Origin: Escarpia spicata
Taxonomy: Eukaryota > Annelida > Polychaeta > Sabellida > Siboglinidae
DNA: 64,000 nucleotides
Assembly: GCA_963995525.1 (NCBI GenBank)
Contig: OZ023208.1
Coordinates: 22,522,120 to 22,586,119, forward strand
Direction: 5' to 3'
Shown: piece by piece, positions 1 to 60,993 of the stretch
Layout of the letters: every line of letters starts with the position of its first letter
Numbering within the stretch: position 1 is the stretch's first letter
Made by a program: the position numbers and the translations under genes
Notes under the pieces: model-generated
The model's database searches: none
Seen by the model: only the letters and a program-made list of their open reading frames with translations
What the model was told of the DNA's origin: nothing

Positions 1-306
1 ATGTACACTTGGAATATACTTTGTGTTGTTGCAGGTGTACACTTGGAATATATATTGTGTTGTTACAGATGTACATTTGGAATATACTTTGTGTTGTTAC
101 AGATGTACACTTGGAATATACTTTGTGTTGTTGCAGATGTACACTTGGAATATACTTTGTGTTGTTGCAGGTGTACACTTGGAATATACTTTGTGTTGTT
201 GCAGGTGTACACTTGGAATATATGTTGTGTTGTTACAGATGTACATTTGGAATATGCTTTGTGTTGTTACAGATGTACACTTGGAATATACTTTGTGTTG
301 TTACAG
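1..306 (+). repeat. 34-bp minisatellite, nine copies of the SPTLC1 acceptor
   Basis: Nine units of exactly 34 bp end at the acceptor of the exon at 307. Each unit starts with a near-copy of the first 13 exon bases (ATGTACAYTTGGA) and ends with TTGTGTTGTTRCAG, the polypyrimidine tract and AG of the real 3' splice site. The array therefore offers nine equivalent acceptors. Because 34 is not a multiple of three and no stop occurs, all three forward frames stay open across it. It may continue upstream of the window. Confidence 0.95.
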
Positions 307-3300
307 ATGTACATTTGGAGGAAGAAGAGAAACTGGCACAGTTTATGGGCACTGAAGAAGCCATTGTTTACTCCTATGGCTTTGCAACTATTGCCAGTGC
401 CATTCCGGCCTACTCCAAAAGGGGTGACGTCATATTCTGGTAGAATGGGTGTTCTAACAAATTACAAACAAAACTGTTGCAGTGATGAGGGTATGTATGG
501 TTGTAGTGATCAAGTTGTGTTCTGGTTGCACTAATCAAGGTGTGTTTAAGTTGCCATCATGAAGGTGTGTTTTGATTGAAGTGATTAGGGTATGTTGGGT
601 TGCTGTGATGACGATGTGTTTTGGTTGCAGTAATGAGAGTGTGTTTGGTTGCAATGACAGGGATGTGTTTTGGTTGCAGTGTCAAGGGTGTGTTTGGTTG
701 CAGTGATAATGGTGTGTTTTGGTTGCAATGACAAGGGTGTGTTTGGTTGTAGTGATGAGGGTGTGGTTGGTAGAAGTGATGAGGGTGTAGTTGGTTGAAG
801 TGATGAGGGTGTGTTTTGGCTGCAGTGATGAGGGTGTTTGGTTGCAGTGATCAGGATGTGTTTGGTTGCAGTGATGAGGGTATATTTGGTTGCAGTGATG
901 AGGCTGTGTTTTGGTTGCAGTGGTGATGACATGTTTGGTTGCAGTGACAGGGGTGTGTTTTGGTTGCAGTGACAAGGTTGTGTTTGGTTGCAGTGATGAG
1001 GTGTGTTGTAATGATGAAGGTATGTTTGGTTGTACTGATAATGCAGTGACGAGAGTATGTTTGGTTGTAGTGATGAGGGTGTGGTTGGTTGAAGTGATGA
1101 GGGTGTGTTTGGTTGCAGTGATTAGGGTGTGTTTGGTTGCAATGATGAGTGTGCGGTTGGTTGAATTATGATGGTGTGTTTGGTTGCAGTGATGAGGGTG
1201 TGTTTGATTGCATTAATGAAGATGCTTTAGTTGCAATAATAATAAGGTAACTTCTTTTACACCTAAATCTTGAGATACCAAGCTCAGATGTGCATCAATA
1301 CAAATCTGTTAGTCAATCTCAGAATCAATAAGCCATATTAAAGACGTCAACAGAAGGATCGATATGCTAGGGAGTTAAGGTGGATACGCAAGTTTATAAA
1401 GTTTTTAAATAATGGCAAAATTATGTAATATTTTCAACTGATCTAACACTAAGAGGGAGCATATTGCAAAGTAGGTGCAGCAACAGAAAATACCCTAGTT
1501 CCAATATTAGTACTGGCTCTAGGAACAAAAAGTAAATCAGAACTAGATGATCGAAGCTGGATAAGCTTTTTTTACAGGGGTAAGCAATTAATATATATGT
1601 TGAAAGTATGTTTTGTTCCTGTGACAAGGTTGTGTTTTGTTGCTGTGACGAGGGTGTGTTTTGTTGCAGTGATGAGGGCGTGTGTTTCGCCATCCAGAAG
1701 GGCATTCAGGCAAGTCGTAGCAAGGTGAAATTATTCCGACACAACGACACAGCGGACCTTGAGAGATTGCTGGCTCTGCATGCCCACGAGGAAAGGAAGG
1801 TTGGTGGTGCTGCTACAGCGGTGTTTATTATTAGAATCTGCTGCAGTGTGGGTACAAACAATCCTTTCAGCGGCTGGTGTCATGAAGCTGTTAAGAACGT
1901 TCTTAACACTAAGATGATGATAAGCAAACAGTAGTTTATGCAAACACATAGCCTAGCTCAGTCAGAACTTGGTGTATAACTTGTGTGTTCTGTCTAGCCT
2001 AGCTTAGTCAGAACTAGGTGTATAACTTGTGTGTTCTGTCTAGCCTAGTTCAGTCAGAACTTGGTGTATAACTTGTGTGTTCTGTCTAGCCTAGCTCAGT
2101 CAGAACTTGGTGTATAACTTGTGTGTTCTGTCTTGCCTAGCTCAGTCAGAACTAGGTGTATAACTTGTGTGTTCTGTCTAGCCTAGTTCAGTCAGAACTA
2201 GGTGTATAACTTGTGTATTCTGTCTAACCTAGCTCAGTCAGAACTAGGTGTATAACTTGTGTGTTCTGTCTAGCCTAGCTCAGTCAGAACTAGGTGTATA
2301 ACCTATGTGTTGTCTGTGACAGGACGTAAAGAAAGCGAGGGTGACCCGTAAGTTCCTCATTGTCGAGGGCCTTTACATAAACTATGGCGACATCTGCCCA
2401 CTTCCCAAACTGGTGAGTATGTTTATCTTCTCTTTATTCACAAAGTAGTTGTTTGTATTTAACTTTGGAATGGGGAGACAAAATGAGCTGGAGATATAAT
2501 TATTGTTGACATTTAGAGTAACAACTATGTCAGTCCCCAATTGTCATAGAGGAGCAGGTGTGTGAGTCATAAAGTGACAGGTGTGTGGGACTTACAGTGA
2601 CAGCCTGACAGGTGTATGGGTGACACAGTGACTAGTCTTTGGGTTATACAGCAACAGGTGTATGGATCATACAGTGACAGGTGTGTGAGTCATACAGTAA
2701 CAATTGTATGTGTCATTCAGTGATAGGTATGTGGGTCATATAATTACATGTGGCATGCGTACACGTATATTCATACATTTGTGCATGAATGCTTTTATTT
2801 GCATGCATCTGTGTACTGCAGATTGTGTAAGTTTATATGCATGCATGTGTGCGTGCTTGTTTAAGTACTCTTTGTTTTTGACTGCAGATGGAACTCAAGT
2901 GGAAGTATAAACTGCGCCTGTTCGTTGATGAGAGTATCTCTTTCGGTACACTCGGCAAAACAGGTAGAGGTGTCACAGAACACTTCAATGTCCCCGTAAG
3001 CTCACTTTCACTATTATTTTGTTATTATTATTACTGGAAATATCATCAATGTTATTTAACTGTAGACCCCACATGACATTTTAAGGAAATTCATTCCAAA
3101 TATGTTTTCAAATGGCATCAACTGAAAGACTTCCGTATAAATGAAAATAAACTCTTATTGTATAACAAACAGACCCATCTTTAAAATTACATATAGCATG
3201 TCACTACCAGTAGATGGCACCACTTATATGAGTAATTAAAGTGCTGTGTAACTGTTTTTGGTTTCAGGCTGTTGGGATAATATGATAATCAGGAAACCTT

Positions 3301-6300
3301 GGCATATGCACCTCATTTCATGGGAAGAGAATTTCCAAATGCTAATATACCCCATTATATGTGTGATTTCTTTATCAAGAATTGTTTTTAATCTGGACAG
3401 ATACATGAAGGACCAGACTGTACGGATTGATTGAGTGCCATTATATGCATATTTTTATTAAATCTCTACCTCACTTGCTTGAACAAAATGCCTTGCCTTT
3501 CCCTTAAGTAATGTCTTATTTTTACATGCTGGCTAATAAAATGGAATGTTTTCTATATTTTCTACATTTCAGATCGATGATGTTGATTTCATATCTGCAT
3601 CATTAGAGAACTCACTCGGATCATTTGGAGGTTTCTGCTGTGGCAAGTCATATGTCATTGACCATCAGGTATGTAACAAGTCATGTCAGCCATCAGTTGT
3701 GTAAGGTGCATCAAGTCATGTCATTGACCATTAGGTATGTAAGATGTAACAAGTCATGTCATTGGCCATCAGTTGTGTAAGATATAACAAGTCATGTCAT
3801 TGCTCATCAGTTGTGTAAGATGTAACAAGTCATGTCATTGACCATCAAGTATGTAACAAGTCATGTCATTAGCCATCAGTTGTGTAAGATGCATCAAGTC
3901 ATGTCATTGACCATCAGGTATATAAGATGTAACAAGTCATGTCATTGGCCATCAGTTGTGTAAGATATAACAAGTCATGTCATTGGCCATCAGTTGTGTA
4001 AGATGTAACAAGTCATGTCACTGACCATCAGGTGTGTAAGATGTAACAAGTCATATCATTGGCCATCAGGTGTGTAAGATGTAACAAGTCATGTCATTGA
4101 CCATCAGGTGTGTAAGATGTAACAGGTCATATCATTGGCCATCAGGTGTGTAATATGTAACAAGTCATGTCATTGGCCATCAGTTGTATAAGATGTAACA
4201 TGTCATTGACCATCAGGTATGTAAGATGTAACAAGTCATGTCATTGGCCATCAGTTGTGTAAGATGTAACAAGTCATGTCATTGGCCATCAGTTGTGTAA
4301 GATGTAGCATGTCACGTCATTGACCATCAGGTATGTAAGATGTAACATTTCATGTCATTGGCCATCAGTTGTGTAAGATGTAACAAGTCATTGACCATCA
4401 GGTGTGTTAGGGATCATCTCAGAACATTGATGTCCGATATGAGACAACATTTCTTTCACTGGCCTGAGCCCCCCACACCCCTCAGATGAAAGTTTGGAAA
4501 CATTGATATGATGATATAAATATAACAGTATCGGTCTCGAAATGTATATATCGATGTCAAATGCCAGACTAAACTACTACTGAACCCCCATCCCCCCAAA
4601 CAAAAGTAATTTTGTCTGATATCGTACATCAACATTCTGAGATGATCCCTAACAAGTCGTGTCACTGACCATCAGAATTGTATACCACTTTACTGTTTAT
4701 TCTACTTGTTTGTATGTATGATTTATACAATTCCAAACTAAACTATCTATCTGCATGTACATAACAAGTTACGTGTCATTGACCACCAGGTGTGTGGCAA
4801 CCCATCATACAAGTAAGAACATTGACTCTGGGGGGATATGTACACATTTAATTGTTTGTGGCAGTGCCATATTGTTGTGACTTGAATGATGCTATGTGCA
4901 ATTGTTGTGATTTGTGCTGCCTGTGTCTGCAGAGGTTGTCGGGCCTGGGATACTGTTTCTCTGCGTCCACGCCACCAATGCTCAGTCAAGCAGCTATTGT
5001 TGCTCTGGACATGCTCAAGAACTCACCAGGTGTGTAAAACAGTAACAGTGTCAGGACGCCTTACAAGACTCCACTTATATCGATCCATCTATTGACAACT
5101 TTAATATGACTTATTGATTCTGAGATTAGCCAACCCTTTTGTATGGAAGCGCCTCTGAGCTTGTTTCCAAGGATTTTGGTGCTAAAGAAGGTATCTCAGT
5201 ATTATTATTGTGGAGGGCTTAGCGCAAAGACTGCCTCTAAGTATGTAATTACTCTGGCCAAAGTCTCTTATGAAAGTTCTTGTCAATGTCATCTATAAAT
5301 TTGTTTCTTTGGCTGTCGGTCTGTTAATGTGATCTGTAAGTATGTTTATTTGGATGTTTATTTGGGCCCATTAGGGTGGTTCGTAAATTTAGACTTTTAA
5401 AAATTTGTCTGGGGGTGAGATCTTAGGGGCTCAGCATTTCAAAAGGTAAGGTAAGATGTAAGTGTTCCACCAACAGCATTTTGTTTTTTTATATCATCGT
5501 AAAGATAATTACGCCAACTACAAATATGTCAATGGATGTATCTAGACATTTTGATTAGTTTTATGTTATTGACGTTTGAAAATCCTGAACACAGGTCTCG
5601 TTAGTATTCAGCAGAGATCAGTATTTTGTTTATATAGAGGCCAAGCTTGTCCTGTAAACTAGACCACTGACCATTTACAATTGATCAATGTGGGCAGGAA
5701 ATTGGGAAGAGTTCAGTTTAAAATGCACTGATTTTGAAAATGGGACGAATTCAACTGATGGGTAGTTGCTGTTGGGTCTATTTTCAATCCCCGTGCAAAG
5801 CTCAACAAGTTAGCTATAATTTCGTATGGAGTGACCTATAAATGCCTGTGTACGTGCAGGAAAGTATGGCACAATAAATGAACATCGCTGGTTTTTCTTT
5901 GTTTGTGGCATGTTATACTTAATTATCTTTGCTAATATTTTATTTTCAGATATGGTTGACCAGCTGCATGAAAACAGTGCATATTTACATGAAAAACTTT
6001 CCAGGTAAGGCTCACAATTGTGTGCTACTTTCCCAAAGCTTTCAACCATGATAACCATCCGTCCAAACCCCATCCATCCATTTATCCAAATCCATTCCTC
6101 CCTATGTCATTAGCATAACATATTTAAGAGAACATCGGAGACCCATTCGCATCAGATATGTCATTAACATAACACATTTAAAGTGGCTTCCTCAGCTTGT
6201 TTGTTCATCGCGAATCCAATTCTTTTATATCCAGATGTGTGAACAGTTTAAGTAATGTGCACAGTCTGTTTTAATAAAAGATATTATAAAAAAATCACTG

Positions 6301-9122
6301 GTTATATCTGGTAGCTGGTAAAAGTCAATTGCTCGTCAGACATTTAGCACCAACTAGTTAAACTTCAACTGTCTTTCCACAAAACTCTTTTCCAGTTCTA
6401 AATTTTTTGATAGTGAAATGCAGTAACTGCCATTGAAATATATTTAAGGCTCAGGCACGTAGTTTCTGCTATTTTCGCCCACATTTTTCTGTAGCATGCA
6501 GAAAAATGTCAATTCAGATTTTACAGAAAAATGTCGATACAGTCTAGTGACAACATCTGGCCAAAAATATTACAAACCTACCTGATAAGTAATTAAATTA
6601 ATTGTATATGTAAGATTTAATAAGTTATACTTTTACGATAGTTTGTATGGCGAGTTCACCAAAACTACATAAAAAGTTGCACGTAAATGTCCTAACATGT
6701 CGCTGTGGATATTAGGTTGGTTTTAGTGTTTGCAAAATTAATTTCAAAAGTGGTGAGCAAAGGTTCGAGTGGAGGAAACAGCTTTAACTCATTAAACCTT
6801 ATGTCATTTTATGACACATGCTCGAAGTACAAGGATAAAATCACCAAAATATCATCTAGTTTTCTGCATTTAACTTTTTGTGTGTTTTGTTTCCTAAAAC
6901 AGCAAGTTGTGCTTGTCTTCAAGATAATTTAATTCCACACAAGATGGCCCTAAATATTTTTGAATCTTTGTCAGTTTATATTTCCAAACAATGCTCATTC
7001 AAAAACTTCCAATACAAAGCCATATCAAAAACTACCCCTAACAGACAGCAGATACACTAAAGAAACCAATGACACAAGTTAGTAAGCGTCAAAGTTAGAA
7101 AAAATGTGTGGCCGCTCAAGGAAATGGGCATCTGGCCACTTTTGGCCATTCAAGGTCTCATGAGTTAACAAAACATTAGAGGCCTGTACACTATAGATAT
7201 GTCACTAGCATAACCAATTTAACATAGCATCTGAGGCCAATTATTTAGTTGTGGTTTGAAGTGACAGCGTTAATGATGGTGCTGTAGGGTGCCGGGTCTC
7301 AGGGTGGTTGCAGACCGCGTCTCACCCGTGCTTCATCTACAACTTGCTGCATCCGACGGAGACCGAGCAGAAGCCACGGCCACACTGAGACGCATTGTGG
7401 AGATGGTGAGTATGGTTAGATTGTGAGTAGGATTAGTTGGCAGGTATGGTTAGATGGTGAGTAGGGTTAGATGGCGAGTATGGTTAGATGGTGAGTAGAG
7501 TTAGATGGGGAGTAGGGTTAGATGGTTAGTAGGGTTAGATGGTGAGTAGGGCTAGATGATGAGTAGGGTTAGATTGTGAGTAAGATTAGATTGCGAGTAC
7601 GGTTAGATGGTGAGTTGGGTTAGATGGCGAGTATGGTTAGATGGTGAGTAGGGTTATGGCGAGTAGGATTAGATGGCGAGTATGGTTAGATGGTGAGTAG
7701 GGTTAGATGGCGAGTATGGTTAGATGGTGAGTAGGGTTATATGGTGAGTAGGATTAGATGGCGAGTATGGTTAGATGGTGAGTGGAGTTAGATGGCGAGT
7801 ATGGTTAGATGGTGTGGAGGGTTAGATGGTGAGTACGGTTAGATGGCGAGTAGAGTTAGATGGCGAGTAGGGTTAGATGGTGAGTAGGGCTAGATGGCGA
7901 GTAGGGTTAGATGTCGAGTATGGTTAGATGGTCAGTAGGGTTAGCCATAAGTCTCACTCTGTTGAAATCAGGAATAAGACAGAACATACAGTTTGAGATA
8001 AGGGTTAGGGTAACCACATAAACGATAACTGTATCAACATTCCAATTTTTATTACAAACCAAGCATTTTTTATTATGGTCCAAGATATTTTGTCAATGAA
8101 GTTGTAAACCTTCTGTGGACTGTCCTTCACCTTTGACCTGCAGGCAGAAGAGGAGGGAGTGGCACTGGTTGTGGCCAGCTACTTGGAGAAAGACGAACGT
8201 CACCTACCACCCCCAAGGTAAGTCACCCGTCTTCCCCAAGGTTGTTCACCTTCACCTGTCTTCTCCAACGTGGTTCACCTGTATCCCCCAAGGTGGCTCA
8301 CCTGTCGCCTATCTCCCCCAAGGTGGTTCACCTGTCTCCCCAAAGTGGTTCACCTGTCACCCGTCTCCCCCAAGGTGGTTCACCGCTCACATGTGTCCCC
8401 CAAGGTGGTTCATCTGTCACCTGTCTCCTCCAAGGTGGCTCATCTGTCACCTGTCTCCTCCAAGGTGGCTCACCTGTCTTCCCCAAGGTGGCTCACCTAT
8501 CACCCATCTTCCCAATGTGTGTCAAATGTTTCAGTATACATGACTACATTACACGTGGTTGTAAGACTTATTTCAGTATACATATGGCTGTAAGAGTAGA
8601 GTTGTTTCAGTATATGTATGGTTGTTGTTTCAGTATACATGTGGTTGTTGTTTCAGTATACATGTGGTTGTTGTTTCAGTGTATGTTTAATTGTTGTTTC
8701 AGTATATATATGGTTGTTGTTTCAGTATGCATGTGGCTGTTTCAATATACATGTGGTTGTTGTTTCAGTATACGTGTGGCTGTTGTTTCAGTATACATGT
8801 GGCTGTTGTTTCAGTATGCATGTTGTTGTTTCAGTATGTGTGGCTGTTGGTTCAGTATGCGTGTGGTTGTTTCAGTATAAGTGTGGCTATTGTTTCAGTA
8901 TAAGTGTGGCTGTTGTTTCAGTACACATGTGGCTGTTGTTTCAGTATGTGTGTGGTTGTTTCAGCATAAGTGTGGCTATTGTTTCAGTATACGTGTGGCT
9001 GTTGTTTCAGTATACGTGTGGCAGTGAACTGTGACTTGGATGAAAAAGAGATGGACAGAGTAGTGGAGGTTATCGACCATGCTTGCCTCGCATCACAAAG
9101 CCGTGCATCATCGAACAATTAG
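307..9122 (+). CDS. SPTLC1: Serine palmitoyltransferase long chain base subunit 1 (partial, 5' missing)
   Basis: LCB1 subunit of the ER enzyme that condenses serine with palmitoyl-CoA, the first step of sphingolipid synthesis. Ten exons join with consistent phase and GT-AG signals: 307-439, 1670-1799, 2323-2412, 2888-2995, 3573-3668, 4933-5029, 5950-6004, 7288-7405, 8144-8217, 9011-9122 (stop TAG 9120-9122). They encode 337 residues, against about 331 for human SPTLC1 from Asp143 on; the N-terminal membrane segment lies outside the window. Diagnostic blocks are [58 protein letters not shown] and GYCFSAS. Where catalytic paralogues (SPTLC2 type) carry the PLP lysine this protein has Asn ([10 protein letters not shown]), as expected for the non-catalytic LCB1 partner. 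Known of the family: it works as a heterodimer with SPTLC2/3. Seven of its introns carry minisatellites. Identification is secure; exon edges are from sequence reading only. Confidence 0.95.
470..1669 (+). repeat. ~24-bp minisatellite copying the acceptor of the SPTLC1 exon at 1670
   Basis: Degenerate 23-24 bp units of the type TTTGGTTGCAGTGATGAGGG fill 470-1235. They are copies of the junction TTTTGTTGCAG|TGATGAGGGCG at 1670. Two or three more units lie directly against the exon (about 1600-1669). The 1236-1600 stretch between them is non-repetitive intron in which I recognise nothing. Confidence 0.9.
1949..2312 (+). repeat. 46-bp minisatellite abutting the SPTLC1 acceptor at 2323
   Basis: About eight units of 46 bp (CCTAGCTCAGTCAGAAC then TTGGTGTATAACTTGTG and TGTTCTGTCTAG). 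The last unit grades into the real acceptor region GTGTATAACCTATGTG followed by TTGTCTGTGACAG. Each unit thus carries a possible branch-point (TATAAC), a T-rich tract and an AG, but no exon bases. Confidence 0.85.
2540..2725 (+). repeat. ~24-bp minisatellite in SPTLC1 intron
   Basis: Degenerate units such as GTGACAGGTGTGTGAGTCAT lie between the exons ending at 2412 and starting at 2888. I see no clear similarity to either flanking splice junction. The unit resembles the acceptor of the previous exon (GTGACAG|GAC) only over seven bases. Confidence 0.7.
3640..4800 (+). repeat. 38-bp minisatellite copying the donor of the SPTLC1 exon ending 3668
   Basis: Roughly two dozen units of about 38 bp begin at the exon edge. 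Each holds the last 17 exon bases and the donor, TGTCATTGACCATCAG|GTAT, followed by GTAAGATGTAACAAG. Many units read GGCCATCAGTTGTG, which destroys the GT-after-AG donor; others keep CAG|GTGTGT. A MITE interrupts the array at 4410-4649 and the repeats resume at about 4650. Confidence 0.92.
4410..4649. mobile_element. MITE with ~40-bp terminal inverted repeats and TA target duplication
   Basis: The ends GGGATCATCTCAGAA and its reverse complement are perfect over 15 bp, and similarity continues to about 40 bp (TGATGTMCGATATSAGACAA). TA flanks both ends (4408-4409 and 4650-4651), the target choice of Tc1/mariner-type elements. There is no coding capacity in 240 bp. A second copy lies at 55679-55912. 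It is inserted inside the minisatellite, so the array is older than this insertion. Confidence 0.88.
5030..7287 (+). other. Two SPTLC1 introns without recognisable features
   Basis: These introns surround the 55-nt exon at 5950-6004. They are AT-rich with no tandem array, no terminal inverted repeats and no credible coding sequence. I see nothing to annotate beyond normal splice signals (GTGTGT/CAG and GTAAGG/TAG). Confidence 0.6.
7406..7960 (+). repeat. 17-bp minisatellite copying the donor of the SPTLC1 exon ending 7405
   Basis: About 30 units of GATGGTGAGTAGGGTTA start at the exon edge, which reads GTGGAGATG|GTGAGTATGG. Every GATG|GTGAGT unit is a consensus-strength 5' splice site, so the intron begins with a ladder of donors spaced 17 bp apart. 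Confidence 0.95.
8218..8520 (+). repeat. ~23-bp minisatellite copying the donor of the SPTLC1 exon ending 8217
   Basis: Units such as CCCCCAAGGTGGTTCACCTG follow the exon end CCACCCCCAAG|GTAAGTCACC. They keep AAG|GT but lose the strong GTAAGT, so they would be weaker donors than the authentic one. Confidence 0.9.
8525..9010 (+). repeat. ~23-bp minisatellite copying the acceptor of the last SPTLC1 exon
   Basis: Some 20 units of TATACATGTGGTTGTTGTTTCAG approach the exon at 9011, whose junction is TTGTTTCAG|TATACGTGTGGC. Each unit has an 11-base match to the exon start behind a usable acceptor. With the donor array at 8218-8520, the intron consists almost wholly of copies of its two borders. 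Confidence 0.94.
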
Positions 9123-9250
9123 GCTATCCACCAGGTGGTTAGATGAGCTCCCATTGTGACATGATAGAAAACGTGTACAGTTAGTAATGTGACTCAATGT
9201 GTCTCACAAAAGAACATTTGTCATGTATTGCAACACCACCCTTTAGTTTG

Positions 9251-9256
9251 ATTAAA
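9251..9256 (+). promoter_or_regulatory. Candidate SPTLC1 polyadenylation signal
   Basis: ATTAAA, the commonest variant of the metazoan poly(A) hexamer, lies about 130 nt after the SPTLC1 stop. No cDNA evidence is available, so this is positional inference. Confidence 0.4.
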
Positions 9257-9663
9257 GTCACAAGTGAGTTTCTGTGTAATCAACCACTGGTCATCTGTAT
9301 AGGCACAGAGATAATGTTTAATGATTTCTTGTGGACGTGTCACAAAATAACGAAACCATTATAATTTTCTGTGAAATGTCTGTATTGGTATTGTGTACAA
9401 TATAGTTTTTAAACGAGATTCTTTATTGTATTTGGATGATACAAGGCATTGGGTATAAGGCAAAACTACAGGTACACATGCGTGAATGTATGGATCATGA
9501 GTGAATCAGGACGGTATTGTATAGAAGCCTTACAGAGCCATTAAAGAATACATCTTGGATGATGATCAAATATCTTTCCTCTGATGAGGGAATTGATAGA
9601 ATGGATTATAAATTATAATAAAACATACTAAATCCTGCTGTTGATCGCACTGTGTACCTGGGT

Positions 9664-9875
9664 TTTATGTTCACGCGTACTAGGGTGCTAATGCGTACTA
9701 CTAGGGTGCTGATGCAAACTACAAGGGTGTTGATGTGTACTACTAGGGTGCTGATGCATACTACTAGGGTGCTGATGCATACTACTAGGGTGCTAATGCG
9801 TACTACTAGGGTGCTGATGCATTCTACTAGGGTGCTGATGCATACTACTAGAGTGCTCATGTGCATTAGGGAGCC
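9664..9875. repeat. 21-bp minisatellite
   Basis: About ten units of TACTACTAGGGTGCTGATGCA. It is intergenic and not derived from a recognisable splice junction. Confidence 0.9.
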
Positions 9876-11700: not shown

Positions 11701-11852
11701 AGGTCTAGGTTCTTACAATCTGTCCATGACATTACAGGCAATAACAGTTTGTTTCCGTATGTTGGACTTGGCAACACTTGACACCACTAAAACAAGTGGT
11801 GACACCTTCATGTGGTCATCTGTGTCACCGGGTATGTGGTCATCGTATGTAG

Positions 11853-35494: not shown

Positions 35495-35620
35495 GTTTAA
35501 ACTTAAATTAAGAAATAAACATTAATAACACATCTGACAGTGACAGCAGCTACCCCTCAAACGCCATAAAACGTGTGTCTATCGACTTCCTCAATCACTT
35601 CCGGTAATGTTAAAACGGAA
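35495..35620. promoter_or_regulatory. Presumed PARS2 proximal promoter (ETS site)
   Basis: About 100 bp upstream of the PARS2 ATG lies ACTTCCGGT (35597-35605), a strong ETS/GABP-type motif typical of promoters of nuclear genes for mitochondrial proteins. The transcription start was not determined. Confidence 0.5.
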
Positions 35621-37372: not shown

Positions 37373-37496
37373 ACTATGCGTTGTGTTTCAGTCACTCTGC
37401 TTTGTGTTTCAGTCACTCTGCCTGGTGTTTAAGTCATTATGCCTTGTATTTCAGTAACTTTGCCTAGTGTTTCAGTCATTCCGCCTTGTGTTTCAG
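37373..37496 (+). repeat. ~23-bp repeat copying the acceptor of the EIF2B2 start exon
   Basis: Five units of GTGTTTCAGTCACTCTGCCTT lead into TTGTGTTTCAG|TCACCATGCCG. They copy the acceptor plus about ten exon bases, with the ATG position replaced (CTCTG or TTATG). The array implies that the real exon starts at 37497, five bases before the ATG. Confidence 0.88.
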
Positions 37497-37501
37497 TCAC
37501 C

Positions 37502-43500: not shown

Positions 43501-46500
43501 CAGGTGTGTGAGTGATTGTTATGTCAGATATGTCAGTGATTGTTATGTCAGGTGTGTGAGTGATTGTTATGTCAGGTATGTCAGTGATTGTTATGTCAGG
43601 TGTGTCAGTGATTGTTATGTCAGGTGTCAGTGATTGTTATGTCAGGTGTCAGTGATTGTTATATCAGGTGTCAGTGATTGTTATATCAGGTGTCAGTGAT
43701 TGTTATGTCAGGTGTGTGAGTGATTGTTATGTCAGGTGTCAGTGATTGTTATGTCAGGTGTGTCAGTGATTGTTATGTCAGGTGTCAGTGATTGTTATAT
43801 CAGGTGTGTCAGTGATTGTTATGTCAGATATGTCAGTGATTGTTATATCAGGTGTGTCAGTGATTGTTATGTCAGGTGTGTGAGTGATTGTTATGTCAGG
43901 TGTCAGTGATTGTTATGTCAGGTGTGTCAGTGATTGTTATGTCAGGTGTCAGTGATTGTTATGTCAGGTATGTCAGTGATTGTTATGTCAGATATGTCAG
44001 TGATTGTTATATCAGGTGTGTCAGTGATTGTTATGTCAGGTGTGTCAGTGATTGTTATGTCAGGTGTCAGTGATTGTTATGTCAGGTATGTCAGTGATTG
44101 TTATGTCAGGTGTCAGTGATTGTTATGTCAGGTGTGTCAGTGATTGTTATGTCAGGTGTCAGTGATTGTTATGTCAGGTGTGTCAGTGATTGTTATGTCA
44201 GGTGTGTCAGTGATTGTTGTGTCAGGTGTGTCAGTGATTGTTGTGTCAGGTGTGTCAGTGATTGTTATGTCAGGTGTCAGTGATTGTTATGTCAGGTGTG
44301 TCAGTGATTGTTGTGTCAGGTGTGTCAGTGATTGTTATGTCAGGTGTGTCAGTTGTATTATGAATGATTTTTGTTTCAATCAGAATTATATCACTCATAA
44401 ATATTTGTTTTACATTTCTTCATTCAAACAATTTCTTTTTAACAAATCCAAAATTGTAATTATCTTGTAGAGATTTTTGCCTGCGCGCCACGCAAGTTCC
44501 ACCAGTACATGCGACATCCTTGTCATATGACATTATCATACACATATGATAGACCGTAGTTGCCCACATCTCGATTGATAATTGTTTTTATTTTCATATG
44601 CACATGACATCTTTTATGCGTCATATTCTTCAATTTACTTCCCTGTCTACTATTTTTGTTCCCTCTGCATCTACGATGTGGTTTTTTCAACACAAAAGAA
44701 TTCATCTGGATATGAAAAACAAAAACACTGATCAATCGAGATGAGGGCAACTACTATCTCACATGTGTATGATAAAATGTGCAGACGAAGCTTATGTGGC
44801 ATCCAGGCGAAAGTCTCTACAAGGTAATTAACATTTTGGATATGTGAAAAAGAAATTGTTTGAATAAAAATTAACTATCCTGAAGAATGTTCAGTAATGT
44901 AATAATTTTATGTTTTCTCATTGAACGATACCAGTGTTTGTGACCTGTTCTAAACCTATGCAGTTTCAATGATGTAACCAGTCATCTACATTCATTTATC
45001 TTCGACAGGGCAGCCTCTGGTAAGGCAGAAGAAGATGATCCAAAGGATTCTCTGCAGGTGATGTTTACAATTTTTGAAAAACAGACAAAATCTAAAAAGC
45101 AACAAGAAATGTCCTCATAAATCATTAGAACGATTCATTTGTTTCTAACACTGTGGAAATATCAATACTTAATATAATCACAAATAAAGGTGTTTTCTTA
45201 TTTGCAGAAACTGCTGATGGCTGAAGGAGAAACATACGATTTCAACAAATTCATGCCTAATTTGAAGGTTTGCTATTGCTTGAACAAGGACTCATTTTTT
45301 ACCTAATTATTCTAAATTGTGTGTATATATTTGGAAGCGCTCTGCAGGAGTGGTAGTTTAATGTGTGTGTCAGTGTTATCTTGTAAGCCGCTGACTGCCC
45401 TTGGTTTCGTTTTAACACTTTATGCTGTGTTTATGCTGTAACACTGTTTATGCAGTGACACTGGTTTATGTTGGACACTGGTTTATGTTGGACACTATTT
45501 TATTTTGTGACACTGGTTTATTCCATAATACTGGTTTGTGTCGTGACACTGGTTTATGTTGTGACACTGGTTTGTGTTGTGACACTGGTTTATGTTGCGC
45601 ACTGGTTTATGTCGTGACACTGGTTTATGTTGGACACTGGTTTATGTTGGACACTATTTTATTTTGTGACACTGGTTTATTCCATAACACTGGTTTATGT
45701 TGTGACACCGGTTTATGTCGTGACACTGGTTTAGTCGTAACACTGGTTTATGTTGTGACACTGGTTTATGTCATGACACTGGTTTATGTCATGACACTGG
45801 TTTTTATCAACTATTCCATCTTTTTGTTACAGGCAACAACAATTGAAGCCGTTAATGAGCTTATCACTGAACTGGAAACGAGGCAAGTCATTTGTTTGAT
45901 TTAATCTATTATAGTAAGTTTAATTAAAACAATTAGTTTCCTTTATCAACCAGGTGAGTACATCAGATCTTTTTCCTTATTACCAGACTCAAAATGTACT
46001 GGATTGGAAGCTTTGATCTGTGTGCTGTGGTTCTTGTAGTGCTCTTGGTGTGTTCTGTGGTTCTTGTAGTGCTCTTGGTGTGTTCTGTGGTTCTTGTAGT
46101 GCTCTTGATGTGTTCTGTGGCTCTTGTAGTGCTTTTGATGTGTTCTGTGGTTCTTGTAGTGCTCTTGATGTGTTCTGTGGTTCTTGTAGTGCTCCTGATG
46201 TGTTCTGTGGTTCTTGTAGTGCTCTTTATGTGTTCTGTGGTTCTTGTAGTGCTCTTGATGTGTTCTGTGGTTCTTGTAATGCTCTTGATGTGTTCTGTGG
46301 TTCTTGTAGTGCTCTTGATGTGTTCTGTGGTTCTTGTAGTGCTCTTGGTGTGTTCTGTGGTTCTTGTAGTGCTCTTGGTGTGTTCTGTGGTTCTTGTAGT
46401 GCTCTTGGTGTGTTCTGTGGTTCTTGTAGTGCTCTTGATGTGTTCTGTGGTTCTTGTAGTGCTCTTGGTGTGTTCTGTGGTTCTTGTAGTGCTCTTGGTG

Positions 46501-49500
46501 TGTTCTGTGGTTCTTGTAGTGCTCTTGGTGTGTTCTGTGGTTCTTGTAGTGCTCTTGATGTGTTCTGTGGTTCTTGTAATGCTCTTGATGTGTTCTGTGG
46601 TTCTTGTAGTGCTCTTGATGTGTTCTGTGGTTCTTGTAGTGCTCTTGGTGTGTTCTGTGGTTCTTGTAGTGCTCTTGGTGTGTTCTGTGGTTCTTGTAGT
46701 GCTCTTGATGTGTTCTGTGGCTCTTGTAGTGCTTTTGATGTGTTCTGTGGTTCTTGTAGTGCTCTTGATGTGTTCTGTGGTTCTTGTAGTGCTCCTGATG
46801 TGTTCTGTGGTTCTTGTAGTGCTCTTTATGTGTTCTGTGGTTCTTGTAGTGCTCTTGATGTGTTCTGTGGTTCTTGTAATGCTCTTGATGTGTTCTGTGG
46901 TTCTTGTAGTGCTCTTGATGTGTTCTGTGGTTCTTGTAGTGCTCTTGATGTGTTCTGTCATTCTTGGAGTGCTCTTGATGTGTTCTGTGGTTCTTGGAGT
47001 GCTCTTGATGTGTTCTGTGGTTTTTGTAGTGCTATTGATGTGTTATGTGGTTCTTGTAGTGCTCTTGATGTGTTCTGTGGTTCTTGTAGAGCTCTTGATG
47101 TGTTCTGTGGTTCTTGTAGTGCTCTTGATGTGTTCTGTGGTTCTTGTAGTGCTCTTGATGTGTTCTGTGGTTCTTGTAGTGCTCTTGATGTGTTCTGTGG
47201 TTCTTGTAGTGCTCTTGATGTGTTCTGTGGTTCTTGTAGTGCTCTTGGTGTGTTCTGTGGTTCTTGTATTGCTCTTGATGTGTTCTGTGGTTCTTGTAGT
47301 GCTCTTGATGTGTTCTGTGGTTCTTGTAATGCTCTTGATGTGTTCTGTGGTTCTTGTAGCGCTCTTGATGTGTTCTGTGGTTCTTGTAATGCTCTTGATG
47401 TGTTCTGTGGTTCTTGTAGTGCTCTTGGTGTGTTCTGTGGTTCTTGTAGTGCTCTTGATGTGTTCTGTGGTTCTTGTAGTGCTCCTGATGTGTTCTGTGG
47501 TTCTTGTAGTGCTCTTGATGTGTTCTGTGGTTCTTGTAGTGCTCTTGATGTGTTCTGTGGTTCTTGGAGTGCTCTTGATGTGTTCTGTGGTTCTTGTAGT
47601 GCTGACAACATCGCCGCCCAAGCTCTGGAGCACATCCACGCCAATGAAGTTGTCCTAACGGGGGGGGACATCTCCAAAACCATTGAAGCTTTTCTCAAGG
47701 TCAGTCTCTTTATTCCAAAGGCATCTAGTCGTTTATTTTACTTCAACCAAGCGTGTCTTCATTCTTGTATTGGTCTCTGACACTGTCAACAGTGCAAAGC
47801 TTTTTGCCAGCGCCAGGTGGTTTGTCACGAGAATAATATCTTCTGCAATAAGGCGCCACCTTTTATGAGATTGCATTTTAGTCCTTCACATAGTGAGTGA
47901 AGTCATCTGTTGTTGAAAAGTGGTCGGTGCGACATATTTTCAAAGACTTCAACAACTGTTCAATCTGTTTTGCCAAATTGTACCAACAGTGTAGATTGTC
48001 GATTACCATGATTAAAATATTGCTCTTTGCCACAAAATTAATTTAATGATCATGTTAGTGAAACACATTTTGAAAATACTCCTTACATTTTCTGTCAGAT
48101 TTTCTTTCAGGATGGATTGTCCTCAGAAGCGTAATATCTTAGTGAAATGGTGCCCTGACTACCGTTTCAGAGAGCAGCCAAGAAACGAAAGTTCCAAGTG
48201 ATCGTAGTTGAATGCGCACCACAATATCATGTAAGCAGATTTTCTGAGATTAGGTTACAAAATAGTCAGAAAAGATTAATTCAGTTATACAAGCAAATAT
48301 GTCAGTTTTCTGGAAAAAATCAATTTGATTTCTGGTATGGAGAGAGCTATATCTTTACACTTTCAAACATGTTCTGTTAAAATCGATTTGAGTATTTTTT
48401 TAACAGAGCAGATTATCTTGTAGATCTTTTGATAATTATTTAAAGATAATAGAATTATAACAATAGTTTGACTTAAAACAGCAATAAAATGCATGTAACT
48501 ATTGTATTCCAGGAACAATCTGAAAGTTTAGATGTGAATCCACGAAAGCAGCTGTTATCAAGGGCATTTATATTGCTATTATTCTCATGGTTATTATAAT
48601 ACAATTGATGCAGCAAGAGTGTGTGTTTTTATAATTTTGTAAGAACACTTTTCTTTCTGTTATATTCATATCAATCAAACGTTAAGAAAATTGTGGAGTA
48701 AAAAATCAAGACAAGATTTTTGGAGTGATTAAAATAATTGTTTACATCAATTATTTCAATGGTTTAAATAGAACAACTCTGGTTGTTTATGATGTAAACA
48801 GTAATTTAGCATCTGAGCAAATACATTGCTGCAGGTGAAAGAAAGGATGTTTTACCTGGCATGTTTCTCTGATTCTAGGGCCAAGAATTGGCTGTCGAGT
48901 TAGCGAAGGCTGAGATTGAGACGATTGTCATTACTGATTCAGCTGTCTTTGCAATGATGTCCCGCGTAAACAAAGTTATCATTGAGACACACACAGTGAT
49001 GGCCAATGGAGGGTAGGTGACCTTAGTCAATGGAGGGTAGGTGGCCTTGGACAATGGAGGGTAGGTGGCCTTGGACAGTGGAGGGTAGGTGGCCTTAGAC
49101 AATGGAGGGCAGGGTTGGCACGTTTTTCCCACCCTGGTAAATACTGGGTGGTAAATACCAGTAAAACCCGCCCTGGGAAAAAAACCAAATATTGGTAAAA
49201 ACCGGGATAACTGGGAAAAACTCTTAAAAGGATTATATTTGAAGCTCCATTGCAATAAAAGTTATTGTACCATCACCAGAATGAATTAATATATATTGTA
49301 TATATTCCACCAAACAGCCCCAGACATGGATGTCACACATGATGGTAACTGACCGGTGCTTCAAGAAAAAAATGCCTGACAGAATGTGTACGTCTAGTCT
49401 GGTCTACTGATACTGGGGTACATGGGTTCCCAGTAGAGGATCCCTGCATACCACTATTTCAAACATTAAGTTGCAGCTGATTTTGTGCTCATAGAGACAA

Positions 49501-52500
49501 TGGCTATAGCTGTTTGTAGGGCCATAGCCAGTTAGCATGGTGTGGCTGGCAATGATACAACTGTTTGTAGGGCCATAGCCAGTTAGCATGGTGTGGCTGG
49601 CAATGATACAGCTGTTTGTAGGGCCATAGCCAGTTAGCATGGTGTGGCTGGCAATGATACAACTGTTGTAGGGCCATAGCCAGTTAGCATGGTGTGGCTG
49701 GCAATGATACAACTGTTTGTAGGGCCATAGCCAGTTAGCATGGTGTGGCTGGCAATGATACAGCTGTTTGTAGGGCCATAGCCAGTTAGCATGGTGTGGC
49801 TGGCAATGATACAACTGTTTGTAGGGCCATAGCCAGTTAGCATGGTGTGGCTGGCAATGATACAACTGTTTGTAGGGCCATAGCCAGTTAGCTGGTGTGG
49901 CTGGCAATGATACAACTAATGTTTGCTGAGAGGGTGCAGTAGAACCTGTCCACAGCTTACCATTTCCTTTGTTCCTTAAACAGATTGCAAATTTGCACCT
50001 GACAATACTGACTTCAGTCACCATACTTGGTACTTGGCACTGTCCGTTGTGAAAGTGACAATGATATTTATTTGCTAACTGATGAATAACTCTTTCATCT
50101 CATTGACTTCATGCTTTAAACAAATACAAGGATACACCTGAACTAGTAACTAGTCAACCTGTTTGCGTTAGATGGATATTAACTATCTTTCTAAATGGAC
50201 TATGTTTAATTACAGGTACTAGTCAATGGTAATCTCAGTTATGAATTTATTCCCGGATAGTACTGGTAAATACCAGATTTACCAGTAAATACCAGATTTT
50301 CCCACTGCCCTGTCTAAAACCGGTTTTTCCTGGAAATGTGCCAACCCTGATGGAGGGTAGGTGACCTTAGTCAATGGAGAGTAGGTGACCTTAGTCAATG
50401 GAGGGTAGGTGACCTTAGTCAATGGATTTAACCAAATAGAGGGTAGGTAACCTAGAGGTGTCATTCATCCTCTTTTCCATTTGGCAACACTTTCTCTCTT
50501 CACATGTGTATACCATGAAATCTCTGTTTTTGTCTCATCTGTTTTATACATCCAAAGATATAAGGAATGTTAGATTAATTTTTGATTAAGTGCCAACATG
50601 TTAGCAAGGACCGCAAGTTATAATAAAGTGTATGTTGTCAGATCGAAGGCATTCTACTGTTATAATCAAGTGTGTGTGTTGTCAGATTGAAGGCATTTAA
50701 CTGTTACAATCAAGTGTATGTTAGACTGAAGACATTCAACAGTTATAATGTAGCGTTTGTTTTCAGACTGAAGACGTTTGATTGTTATAATGAAATGTAT
50801 GTCCTCAGTCTGACTGTTATAATGAAGTGTATGTTGTCAGATTGAAGGCATTCAACGGTAGTTACGCCATTGCCCTCGCAGCCAAACACCATTCAGTACC
50901 GGTGAGTCAACTTCTACAGCTAATATTCACGGCCACTATGTTAATTAGCTATAGTAGATAAAAAGTATTTTTCAAGTAAATAAATAACTATTATTTGTCC
51001 TGTAACAGAAATCCATCACTGGCTTTTTATTACGCTATCTTTAATTTAAAAATGGCTGCCAAAACCATAATACGTTGGACTAAGTCATGAGGAATAATGA
51101 TTTTGGTGGCTAGACCCACATATTTGGGGACATGATATCTGACTGTTGCAAAGTTACCTTGCTTTCTTTGACAGTGGCCTTAGATGTCAAAATGGCTGCC
51201 ACAGTACTACCTTCTTGTGTTTGCTGTGCAGCATGATCTGTAATGGTGGGTTACAACATCGTGCCATTGATTGTGTTTCTGATAATAAATGCTTTCTCTG
51301 TTGCAACAGATGGTTGTGTGTGCTGCCATGTTCAAGCTGTCCCCACAATATCTCTGCTCGTCAGACCAGGTGAATAATCTCATGTAATATTGATTTAACA
51401 TGCAAGTGTTGAGACGTGGGTGTTATTGTAGCTGAGTGGAACACCTGGTCACATCAGTGGCCCTACCATCACATCAGTGGCCCTACCATTACACCAGTGG
51501 TCCTACCATCACATCAGTGGCCCTACCATCACATCAGTGGCCCTACCAACACTTCAGTGGCCCTACCATCACATCAGTGGCCCTACCATTACACCAGTGG
51601 CCCTGCCATCACATAAGTGGCCCTACTATCACACCAGTGGCCTTACCATTACACCAGTGGTCCTACCATCACACCAGGCGCCCTACCATAACATATGTAG
51701 CCGTACCATCACACCAGTGGCCTTACCATTACACCATTGGTCCTACCATCACACCAGGCGCCCTACCATAACATATGTAGCCGTACCATCACACCAGTGG
51801 CCTTACCATTACACCATTGGTCCTACCATCACACCAGGCGCCCTACCATAACATGTAGCCGTACCATCACACCAGTGGCCTTACCATTACACCAGTGGTC
51901 CTACCATCACACCAGGCGCCCTACCCTAACATCAGTGGCCCTACCATCACATAAGTGGCCCTACTATCACACCAGTGGCCTTACCATTACACCAGTGGTC
52001 CTACCATCAAACCAGGCGCCCTACCATAACATATGTAGCCGTACCATTACACCAGTGGCCTTACCATTACACCAGTGGTCCTACCATCACACCAGGTGCC
52101 CTACCATAACATATGTAGCCGTACCATCACACCAGTGGCCTTACCATTACACCAGTGGCCCTACCATCACACCAGTGGCCCTACCCTAACATCAGTGGCC
52201 CTACCATCACACCAATGGCCCTACCATCACATCAGTAATTCATTTAATCAAAAACATTCACACAATTTTTGAATAAATTGATGATCCAGTTTCTCTGTTA
52301 TTAATAGTATGCATAATTACCTGCAAAAAAATTGCTGTGTGATCTGGATATTTTGCGGTCTTCTTCAACAGACTAATATTTCGGGTGTTTCGAAATTACT
52401 GCTGACCCGGAGGCCCGAGACCATCAAATATTTCACCGGGCCGGTAATGGAAAAGCGCCGGCCCGCAAGACTGGCAAATTTTTTTAAAGAAAATTTTTGT

Positions 52501-55500
52501 AGTATCCCGGCCAACCTCGATTCAATTTCATCATTATAACTATGTTCACCTGAATTTAATACCTAAGTGACATGGTTCTGTCATTCAACGTCATTCCAGA
52601 CATATTTATATTATGAAAATATTGCGTCTTAGCACACTTTTGAGGCCCAAAATGCGACCCGCTGCGGCCACGGGTTACCGCAATGAGCAATATCGCATCG
52701 TATGTTGTTGCAAACTGGGTCGCTCTTTGGGCTTCAAAAGTGTGCTAAGACGTGATATTTTTGTAACGTAGATATGCATGAGATGATGTTGATGTAACAA
52801 CAAAGTCGAGGTGAGCCCGGACACTAGACAAGTGCCAATAATGGTAACATTTGTGTACTTCCGAACGGGAAATTTGTTACGTTTACAAGCGTGGTACAAA
52901 AACAGTTGGAAAATTTTGAGCTGATCAATGCTGATAGATCGATTGAGTTTAGTTTCGTAGTGCTGGCACTTGCAGCGAGTTCTGCTGAATGTGAAAGAGG
53001 CTTCACAGCACAGTGAAACGAGTGAAGAGTTCAAGACTGAGTTTTGAAACCGCATGAAGCCATCCACAGTGTCAGCTGTCATCACCATCTAGCTGCATTC
53101 ACACGGCATGGCTGACTTCAAACCCACATCAGCTATCCACCTATGGAATAGATCCGGCGCGAGGATGCCCAACTTCATGTCCGAGTTGGACTCGGACAGT
53201 GAGTCACTGTTGGAGTCCAGCTCGGATTCAGCTGGAGTCACTGTCAGTGACTCGAGCGAGTGTTCCACGGACAGTCCTGGTGCTCCTGCAGATGATGGCA
53301 ACAGTTCTGGGTAGTCTCCTGCTGACAATCGTGTAGTGGTGTTTGTTGTAATTTGCAACATTTATGTTTTCCTGTCAACAATCAACTGTTGCCTATGTTG
53401 TCATTTTATATTCGCTGATTCTTTAATCTAAATATCGTAAATTAATATGTAGGACAGACTTGGCCTGAACTAGTATATCAATATTTGCCATGCATTACAG
53501 CTGCAAATGTATATTACTAGCGTTTGTTAATATTTGGACCACCAACTTTTGTGTGGGACCACCAACTTTTGAAAGTTGAAGGTCCAACTGACCACCAACT
53601 TTTCAGCTAAGGTGTAGAACACTGCATGTGACACAAGCTGGAGAAGGATGATTGTTTATTCTTACAGAATGCATTCAACAAGTTTGCCAGTGCTCAGGAT
53701 GTGTATTTTATTACAGAACGCATCCAACAAGTTTGCCAGACCTTGGGATGTGTTTGTTCTCACGGAATGCATTCAACAAGTTTCTCAGACCTCAAGATGT
53801 GTTTGTTCTCACAGAATGCATTCAACAAGTTTGTCAAACCTCAAGATATGTTTGGTCTCACATAATGCATTCAACAAGTTTGCCAGTCTTCAGGATGTGT
53901 TTGTTCTTACAGAATGCATTCAACAAGTTTGCCAGTCTTCAGGATGTGTTTGTTCTTACAGAATGCATTCAACAAGATTGCCATTCCTCAGGATGTGTTT
54001 CTTCTTACAGAATGCATTCAACAAGTTTGCCAGTTTTCAGGATGTGTTTCTTCTTACAGAATGCATTCAACAAGTTTGACAATCGTGTAGTGGTGTTTGT
54101 TGTAATTTGCAACATTTATGTTTTCCTGTCAACAATCAACTGTTGCCTATGTTGTCATTTTATATTAGCTGATTCTTTAATCTAAATATCGTAAATTAAT
54201 ATGTAGGACAGACTTGGCCTGAACTAGTATATCAATATTTGCCATGCATTACAGCTGCAAATGTATATTACTAGCGTTTGTTAATATTTGGACCACCAAC
54301 TTTTGAAAGTTGAAGGTCCAACTGACCACCAACTTTTCAGCTAAGGTGTAGAACACTGCATGTGACACAAGCTGGAGAAGGATGATTGGACCATGAAATC
54401 TGGCACAGAAGAAAGGCCAAGGAGATGATCAGTATCCACAAAGGGAAACCTACATTGAACCGTGATGTTGGCTAGGAGCTCCCACCAGTACTTTACCAGT
54501 TTGAGTCACATCATATTGGTCATGTTTATTCTTACAGAATGCATTCAACAAGTTTGCCAGTGCTCAGGATGTGTATTTTATTACAGAACGCATCCAACAA
54601 GTTTGCAAGACCTTGGGATGTGTTTGTTCTCACGGAATGCATTCAACAAGTTTGCCAGACCTTGGGATGTGTTTGTTCTCACAGAATGCATCCAACAAGT
54701 TTGCCAGACCTTGGGATGTGTTTGTTCACATAGAATGCATTCAACAAGTTTGTCAGACCTCAAGATGTGTTTGTTCTCACAGAATGTATTCAACAAGTTT
54801 GTCAGACCTCAAGATATGTTTGGTCTCACATAATGCATTCAACAAGTTTGCCAGACCTGAGGATGTGTTTGTTCTCACAGAATGCATTCAACAAGTTTGC
54901 CAGTCTTCAGGATGTGTTTGTTCTTACAGAATGCATTCAACAAGTTTGCCAGTCTTCAGGATGTGTTTGTTCTTACAGAATGCATTCAACAAGTTTGCCA
55001 GTCCTCAGGATGTGCTGAAGTATTCGACTGGGGAGATTCTGTCCAAGGTTCACATTCATAATCCAGTCTTTGATTATGTGCCACCAGAACTTGTCACACT
55101 GTTCATCTCAAACATGTAAGTTATTTCTTATTAACAACAGTGTACCCCATTATAAGCAGAAAGTAGCCCTATGGTCTGAGGTTATTTTTTTAAGAATCGA
55201 ATGCTTTCACCAGAAATAAATGTAGCAGCTCAAAAATGACAACTGATAAAACAATGCATGTTAAAATCTACAAAAATTCAGTGGATGACGTTTTCCACTT
55301 TTTTATGAACATATTTCCGCTTTTACAACTTATGTTGACAGCTATGGCAAGGATTCATGTAAATGATTTATAAGAAACTCTTGATAGCTGCACGTATAAT
55401 GCTGTTATCTTACTTACTAACTAAATGTTGTTTGATATTTTCAGTGGTGGGAATGCACCTTCCTATATCTACAGACTGCTAAGTGAACTGTATCATTCCG

Positions 55501-58583: not shown

Positions 58584-60993
<2,410 letters not shown>

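What the first reader, a model, noticed from the sequence alone, without database searches (positions are those of the whole stretch)
1..54978. A whole class of minisatellites whose unit is an exon-intron junction
About 18 arrays, roughly 18 kb, have units that contain the adjacent splice site plus neighbouring exon bases. Acceptor type: exons at 307, 1670, 9011 (SPTLC1), 22598, 20026, 18822 and probably 27254 (PARS2), 37497, 39384, 47600, 50841, 54979 (EIF2B2). Donor type: exons ending 3668, 7405, 8217, 22505, 21662, 40479, 49012 and probably 37870. Three different genes on both strands show it and unit lengths differ (16-54 bp), so each array arose independently. The arrays always lie on the intron side with the intact exon at one end. 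This suggests a mechanism that copies splice junctions (slippage or repair focused on exon borders) or selection that tolerates growth only there. I recall a report of such repeats in amphioxus, which I cannot verify here.
Basis: partly seen in the sequence, partly recalled or inferred. Interest (0 to 1): 0.92.

Follow-up and report, generated by a model that had tools for sequence, protein, structure and literature searches.

The report
Annelid minisatellites built from splice junctions
In one region of an annelid worm genome, many introns carry long tandem repeats whose unit is a copy of the neighbouring exon-intron border, and two sister gene copies suggest how they begin: likely as small duplications that splicing would hide from the protein.

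Summary
The 1.06 Gb genome has an annelid mitochondrial contig (nearest named COX1: Siboglinidae, 86%). Genes 24-177 kb beyond the window (SLC4A11-like, two LMBRD1 paralogues) show the same, as do single borders on C15 and C2. Over 13 gene loci, 46 of 103 intronic arrays match their own intron's junction, against 0 of 17,444 comparisons with other genes' junctions. Outside the window 12 of 40 arrays overlap an exon, 4.4 expected by random placement. The LMBRD1 paralogues point to recent births: one border is single in one copy and repeated 8 times in the other; another is single in one and doubled in the other with 5 bp microhomology (ATTGA) between intron and exon. Such repeats are known from amphioxus as 'mirages', so this is a new member of a known kind, in another phylum and at high regional density (only 2 of 48 borders at seven loci elsewhere, biased to short introns). 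Splicing itself is untested.

The parts
1..319 (+). SPTLC1 acceptor array, 34 bp unit (13 exon + 21 intron bases), exon starts 307; cut by window start
476..1219 (+). Detached part of the array of acceptor 1670 (24 bp, same unit), separated by about 390 bp of other sequence
   Evidence: own-junction score 26, best foreign 10.5
1609..1683 (+). SPTLC1 acceptor array, exon starts 1670
3671..4391 (+). SPTLC1 donor array, 38 bp unit, exon ends 3668
   Evidence: exon-edge 14-mer recurs 21 times
7401..7944 (+). SPTLC1 donor array, 17 bp unit, exon ends 7405
8199..8505 (+). SPTLC1 donor array, 23-30 bp unit, exon ends 8217; same intron as the next row, different unit
8601..9022 (+). SPTLC1 acceptor array, 23 bp unit, exon starts 9011
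18789..19749 (-). PARS2 acceptor array, 40 bp unit of which 34 are exon bases coding the conserved MGCFGIGVT stretch, exon starts 18822
20016..20515 (-). PARS2 acceptor array, 47 bp unit, exon starts 20026; further unit copies seen by eye beyond other sequence at about 20516-20790
21530..21690 (-). PARS2 donor array, 38 bp unit, exon ends 21662
22024..22541 (-). PARS2 donor array, 44 bp unit with 37 exon bases, exon ends 22505
22578..26297 (-). PARS2 acceptor array, 54/108 bp unit, about 68 half-units, exon starts 22598
37354..37511 (+). EIF2B2 acceptor array, 21 bp unit, before the exon that holds the start codon (37497)
39272..39415 (+). EIF2B2 acceptor array, 32 bp unit, exon starts 39384
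40471..44354 (+). EIF2B2 donor array, 24 bp unit, 154-167 copies, exon ends 40479
46019..47603 (+). EIF2B2 acceptor array, 30 bp unit, about 52 copies, exon starts 47600
49004..49113 (+). EIF2B2 donor array, 24 bp unit, exon ends 49012
50350..50426 (+). Other part of the 49012 donor array beyond an inserted stretch (49114-50349)
   Evidence: own-junction score 25
50617..50860 (+). EIF2B2 acceptor array, about 42 bp unit, exon starts 50841
53653..54078 (+). Separated block of the 54979 acceptor array
   Evidence: own-junction score 38; 259 bp stretch 95% identical to the main block
54523..55014 (+). EIF2B2 acceptor array, 49 bp unit with 36 exon bases, exon starts 54979

Best explanation
The arrays are 'mirages': tandem copies of an exon-intron border lying on the intron side of the intact exon, which likely start as short microhomology-mediated tandem duplications with one end in the intron and one in the exon and then likely grow by slippage or unequal exchange. 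Shown: units contain the splice site plus exon bases; arrays match their own border and not those of other genes; donors and acceptors both do it; arrays overlap exons more than random placement predicts in the genes tested; in two LMBRD1 paralogues one border is single in one copy and 8 x 70 bp in the other, where the array abuts a mobile element that is cut short there and runs on in the sister copy; a second border is single in one copy and 2 x 62 bp in the other, with ATTGA at both ends of the duplicated stretch. Inferred: the exon is the source of the copies (units hold conserved coding stretches); both paralogue differences are gains after the gene duplication; splicing uses only the copy next to the exon body, so the mRNA is unchanged and the duplication is close to neutral; and the excess at borders reflects more frequent birth there rather than longer survival.
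For: Borders and units. Specificity: 20 of 20 border-overlapping arrays rank their own border first among 72 windows, and 12 of 35 other intronic arrays do, about 1 expected; 7 of those 12 score 15 or more; 46 of 103 arrays score 15 or more with their own border; 0 of 17,444 comparisons with other genes' borders, LMBRD1 copies not compared with each other. Exon-edge recurrence 15 of 78 against 0 of 443 interior-exon controls. Replication outside the window: SLC4A11-like plus LMBRD1 copy a, 12 of 40 arrays overlap an exon, expected 4.41, tail 1.2e-4; LMBRD1 copy b, not independent, 6 of 18, expected 2.14. Elsewhere: a myosin P-loop exon on C15 and a CCT exon on C2. Birth: (paralogue exon bodies 1285 of 1329 identical); the element next to the 8-copy array matches window 4409-4660 over query bases 18-169 in copy a and 18-252 in copy b. 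Unit lengths ignore the reading frame: 6 of 18 are multiples of 3.
Against: No RNA data: that only the outermost copy is spliced is inferred from reading frame and homology. Only one duplication shows clean microhomology; the ends of the 8 x 70 bp array show none that convinces. That doubled border has no marker to tell gain from loss. 57 of 103 intronic arrays do not match their own border, and random intronic 14-mers recur in 621 of 1560 trials, so ordinary intron minisatellites are at least as common. Prevalence is regional: seven loci elsewhere gave 2 of 48 borders and 2 of 11 arrays. Strict neutrality is not clear: the splice dinucleotide is less conserved than both other parts of the unit in 8 of 18 arrays (5 of 7 donor arrays), more in 8, between in 2, so donor copies may decay faster. 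The hot-spot step rests on an excess of about 3-4 fold and on three single-versus-array differences, two of them at borders.
Confidence: 0.72

Rival explanations
1. No bias at borders: short tandem duplications fall anywhere in introns or up to one unit into exons, purifying selection removes those that change the mRNA, and border arrays are simply the ones that happened to straddle.
For: The border falls at varied places inside the unit (4 to 37 exon bases in units of 17-54); 57 of 103 arrays do not match their border.
Against: Placement test gives 14 of 32 against 3.2 in the window and 12 of 40 against 4.41 outside it. The test uses the smallest strong period of each array; larger units would raise the expectation.
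Confidence: 0.2
2. Transcription- or splicing-coupled breakage (for example R-loops at borders) makes the duplications; the arrays are a scar of co-transcriptional damage.
For: Intronic arrays are T-rich on the coding strand in all six gene copies (TA skew 0.11-0.30 against -0.04 to 0.11 for other intron DNA) and G-rich in the three window genes; array coverage 50% inside four gene spans against 24% outside.
Against: GC skew is near zero in SLC4A11 and LMBRD1 arrays; splice-site composition alone (T-rich tract, GT) could give the skew; the 'outside' part includes genes, the LMBRD1 pair among them.
Confidence: 0.25
3. The arrays are relics of intron birth by tandem duplication of exonic AGGT sites (Rogers model).
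For: Tandem duplication carrying splice sites is the proposed route (discussed in PMC3087553 section 16).
Against: Units contain intronic bases, one intron can hold different donor and acceptor arrays (8199-8505 and 8601-9022), and LMBRD1 introns 5 and 7 exist with a single border in the sister copy.
Confidence: 0.04
4. The arrays are selected: banks of decoy splice sites that tune splicing or intron retention.
For: 360 of 465 unit copies (true border included) keep AG or GT/GC.
Against: The dinucleotide is not better kept than the rest of the unit overall (less in 8 of 18 arrays, more in 8), unit lengths ignore the reading frame (6 of 18), and copy number differs freely between LMBRD1 paralogues.
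Confidence: 0.06
5. Assembly or gene-model artefact.
For: Tandem repeats are hard to assemble; exons are inferred from homology, not RNA; reads were not available.
Against: Conserved protein reading runs across most joins; the same structure at many loci, with diverged, not identical, units.
Confidence: 0.03

Closest known systems
'Mirages' of amphioxus (Branchiostoma Adh3, TnC, globin BflGb6/BflGb9, PGBD5)
   Same: [quoted passage not shown] units 10-72 bp in Adh3, 150-160 bp in globins (PMC3087553 section 16; PMC3902484 one passage).
   Different: Here in an annelid, in all six gene copies modelled in one 264 kb region, arrays up to 3.9 kb and over 150 copies, and with a paralogue pair that shows border arrays present in one copy and single in the other. 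Splicing and somatic instability, studied in amphioxus, are untested here.
Intron gain by tandem genomic duplication (Rogers model; potato RdRp case PMC4974935, search listing only)
   Same: Tandem duplication that carries splice signals and leaves the protein unchanged.
   Different: No new intron is seen; the two LMBRD1 introns tested exist with a single border in a sister gene.
Introners (PMC9860276, search listing only)
   Same: Repeated DNA tied to splice sites.
   Different: Introners are dispersed copies in many genes; the three arrays searched here match only their own locus.
Ordinary intronic minisatellites, including earthworm metallothionein intron 1 repeats (PMC12783039, passages only)
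   Same: Tandem arrays in annelid introns.
   Different: Those passages do not describe units containing the splice border.

Membership tests
Mirages | Tandem repeat unit spans an exon-intron border | tested here: met
   18 window borders; 41 of 176 borders in 13 loci
Mirages | Both 5' and 3' borders of introns affected | tested here: met
   Window genes: 11 acceptors and 7 donors
Mirages | Many, not all, copies keep AG or GT | tested here: met
   360 of 465 copies in 18 arrays (summed by hand)
Mirages | Regular splicing undisturbed | not testable with these tools
   No RNA data held
Mirages | Length instability between alleles or in soma | tested here: inconclusive
   Copy numbers of six shared border arrays differ between paralogues (43/59, 5/3, 16/26, 19/48, 9/18, 18/45); alleles not examined
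Introners | Dispersed family of near-identical intron sequences | tested here: not met
   Three arrays searched against the genome match only their own locus (the tool scores best candidates only)
Intron gain by tandem duplication | Intron absent before the duplication | tested here: not met
   LMBRD1 introns 5 and 7 present with a single border in the sister copy; other introns not tested

The most novel reading that the evidence does not exclude
Exon-intron borders are themselves hot spots at which short tandem duplications are born, because splicing hides them and because transcription or break repair is error-prone there; in some animal lineages this makes splice junctions a major seed of intron growth, so that nearly half of the intronic repeat arrays in a gene-dense stretch are expanded splice sites.
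Probability: 0.33. Interest if true: 0.86.

Novelty: new member of a known kind. Interest (0 to 1): 0.7.

Why it matters
It takes a structure that the papers found here report only for a few amphioxus genes to a different phylum and to dozens of borders, and supplies a before-and-after pair: sister gene copies with the border single in one and repeated in the other, one of them with microhomology. It also sets a clean natural test of how a spliceosome finds one true site beside many close copies (101 of 167 copies keep GT/GC in the largest donor array), and of whether tandem duplication at borders is a steady source of intron length.

Tried and rejected
Amphioxus origin: rejected by mitochondrial gene order and COX1. 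Codon-usage exon finding: too weak, 4 of 28 known exons hit at first, 29 of 39 at a lower cut-off, used only to spot genes. Annotation-free test of splice-like sites in array units: outside the window donors at score 8 or more in 0.15 of 86 units against 0.08 in shuffles, acceptors 0.21 against 0.10; suggestive only, the matrices were trained partly on border arrays. Residual unit length as a general measure of microhomology: considered and dropped, not computed. A concatenated exon-identity figure (1007 of 1413) was an offset error; one search replaces it. The seven loci elsewhere were picked for several myosin or CCT exons lying close together, which favours short introns, and their borders were set by splice-site score: three acceptors there lack AG and a few donors are off by a base, so 2 of 48 is a rough, probably low figure. 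EIF2B2 lacks one short exon between 40479 and 45833 in my model, SLC4A11 about 80 residues, SPTLC1 its 5' exons; the SERBP1-like and zinc-finger genes were not modelled.
Full report
What was checked. Tandem Repeats Finder gives 90 rows. The joined exons align in one block to solved human SPT1, in two blocks to bacterial ProRS and in two to human eIF2B-beta (the gap in the last is a short exon I did not place between 40479 and 45833).

The arrays. The two 'probable' ones, 27254 and 37870, have arrays nearby whose units do not match the border well enough. Fifteen TRF intervals run 4-37 bp into the exon, at most one unit. The unit at 18822 has 34 exon and 6 intron bases and codes part of a conserved synthetase stretch; the unit at 54979 has 36 exon bases. 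I infer that the exon is the source of the copies. The border falls at varied places within the unit.

Controls. Exon-terminal 14-mers recur twice or more in the adjacent intron at 15 of 78 borders of four genes; 14-mers from the interior of the same exons do so in 0 of 443 trials, while random intronic 14-mers recur in 621 of 1560, since these introns are full of repeats (the test misses units with fewer than 14 exon bases). In the own-junction test every array unit is aligned to the two border windows of its own intron and to those of other introns. Of 55 intronic arrays in four genes, all 20 that overlap an exon rank their own border first, and 12 of the 35 others do too, against about 1 expected; 7 of the 12 score 15 or more, the others 8.5-14. 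Over 13 gene loci, 46 of 103 intronic arrays score 15 or more with their own border and none of 17,444 comparisons with borders of another gene does; 41 of 176 borders are hit. Placing arrays at random in their introns, with almost one unit of exon overlap allowed, predicts 3.2 overlaps of 32 in the window, observed 14. Because the window was picked for this feature I repeated it outside: SLC4A11-like alone 6 of 23 against 2.41, LMBRD1 copy a alone 6 of 17 against 2.00, together 12 of 40 against 4.41 (tail 1.2e-4); LMBRD1 copy b, a relative of copy a, 6 of 18 against 2.14.

How general it is. In 264 kb of C4 around the window TRF arrays cover 29%, and each of the six gene copies modelled there has border arrays (SPTLC1 6 of 20, PARS2 5 of 14, EIF2B2 7 of 22, SLC4A11 7 of 24, LMBRD1 7 of 24 and 7 of 24 borders; 44 of 92 arrays). 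At seven loci elsewhere (C2, C4 at 68.6 Mb, C6, C8, C13 twice, C15), taken because several myosin-head or CCT exons lie close together, 2 of 48 borders and 2 of 11 arrays qualify: the P-loop exon of a myosin on C15 and an exon of a CCT subunit on C2. That choice favours short introns and some of those borders are wrong, so the figure is rough. The class is not confined to the window's region, but its density there is not typical of those loci.

Paralogue pair. A LMBRD1-like gene lies in two direct copies, C4:22661239-22684120 and C4:22734480-22763086, exon bodies 1285 of 1329 identical. At the acceptor of intron 5, copy b has one border; copy a has eight 70 bp units, each with 36 exon and 34 intron bases. 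Upstream, a mobile element related to window 4409-4660 matches over query bases 18-252 in copy b but only 18-169 in copy a, where it stops a few bases before the array. The longer element is most simply the older state, so the array in copy a likely arose after the gene duplication and took the element's end with it. At the acceptor of intron 7, copy a has one border and copy b two 62 bp units; ATTGA stands at the intron end of the unit and at exon bases 2-6, and the doubled stretch is exactly 2 x 62 + 5 bp. This is what a tandem duplication between two short matching sequences would leave; here no marker tells gain from loss. Six border arrays shared by both copies differ in copy number; units are about as alike between copies as within them. 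Interior arrays differ too: intron 4 of copy b has about 50 units of a 36 bp stretch that is single in copy a.

Mechanism. Shown: repeated border segments, private units for the three arrays searched genome-wide, arrays interrupted by other sequence (for example 49114-50349). Inferred: splicing uses the copy next to the exon body, so the mRNA stays the same; in support, unit lengths ignore the reading frame (6 of 18 multiples of 3). The splice dinucleotide is kept in 360 of 465 copies; it is less conserved than both other parts of the unit in 8 of 18 arrays, 5 of them donor arrays, more in 8 and between in 2, so some counter-selection of donor copies is possible. The excess at borders is real in this sample but its cause is open: more births there (my choice; two of the three single-versus-array differences between the paralogues are at borders) or longer survival. 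The arrays are T-rich on the coding strand in all six gene copies and G-rich in three, which fits either a transcription-linked process or plain splice-site composition.

What organism. C1097 (15,939 bp) carries nad4L-nad4-...-nad1-nad3-nad2-cox1-cox2-...-cox3-nad6-cob-atp6-...-nad5 on one strand (genes named by eye); that this is the annelid order is recalled. Of 7,999 COX1 candidates the best 120 are listed: the first looks like the same sequence read with another code, the next is Siboglinidae at 86%, then mostly annelids at 80% and below with molluscs from 76% down.

Known or new. [quoted passage not shown] PMC3902484, one passage; the original Adh3 paper not seen). Searches for the same elsewhere listed no such report outside amphioxus; several listings were capped (for example 20 of 80, 20 of 54, 12 of 55), only three of the papers were opened, and subscription papers are mostly not held. 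An earthworm paper with intronic minisatellites (PMC12783039, passages) does not describe border-spanning units in those passages. I therefore file this as a new member of a known kind, in a second phylum. For short tandem duplications at breaks I saw only the start of one abstract (PMC8355091).

Noticed in passing
C4:22661239-22684120 and C4:22734480-22763086 (L021-L023, L028-L031): LMBRD1-like gene in two direct copies about 73-80 kb apart, exon bodies 1285 of 1329 identical, with many intron arrays; a good natural experiment on array turnover.
   Followed up: yes
window 4409-4660: Short element with inverted ends next to the donor array of 3668; relatives in both LMBRD1 copies and elsewhere in the 264 kb.
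   Followed up: partly
window 49114-50349: Stretch with CAGGGTTGGCAC-like inverted ends (by eye) that splits the 49012 donor array in two; it holds its own 51 bp array.
   Followed up: no
L023-L025, about C4:22692000-22703500: Polinton-like element (ORFs resembling DNA polymerase B, packaging ATPase, integrase, by eye) between the LMBRD1 copies; only noted.
   Followed up: no
window 16146-17189 (-): Open frame with reverse transcriptase domain (PF00078, 122.7 bits), nearest solved relatives R2 and LINE-1 proteins.
   Followed up: partly
window 61342-61851 (+) and 59372-61077 (-): Start of a SERBP1/HABP4-like gene (PF16174) and C2H2 zinc-finger exons on the other strand.
   Followed up: partly
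L010/L011 (C1097), about 1950-3030 and 12890-13960: Mitochondrial contig with two long low-complexity stretches of alternating purine-pyrimidine type, one between nad4 and nad1 and one between atp6 and nad5.
   Followed up: no
G000:C238:74858-82661 and C3:47720007-47727817: Myosin exon matches with identical scores on a small contig and on C3, which suggests alternative-haplotype contigs in the assembly; useful for allele comparison.
   Followed up: no
L033:724-925: Myosin P-loop exon (GESGAGKT) with 85 bp upstream copies of its acceptor border.
   Followed up: yes
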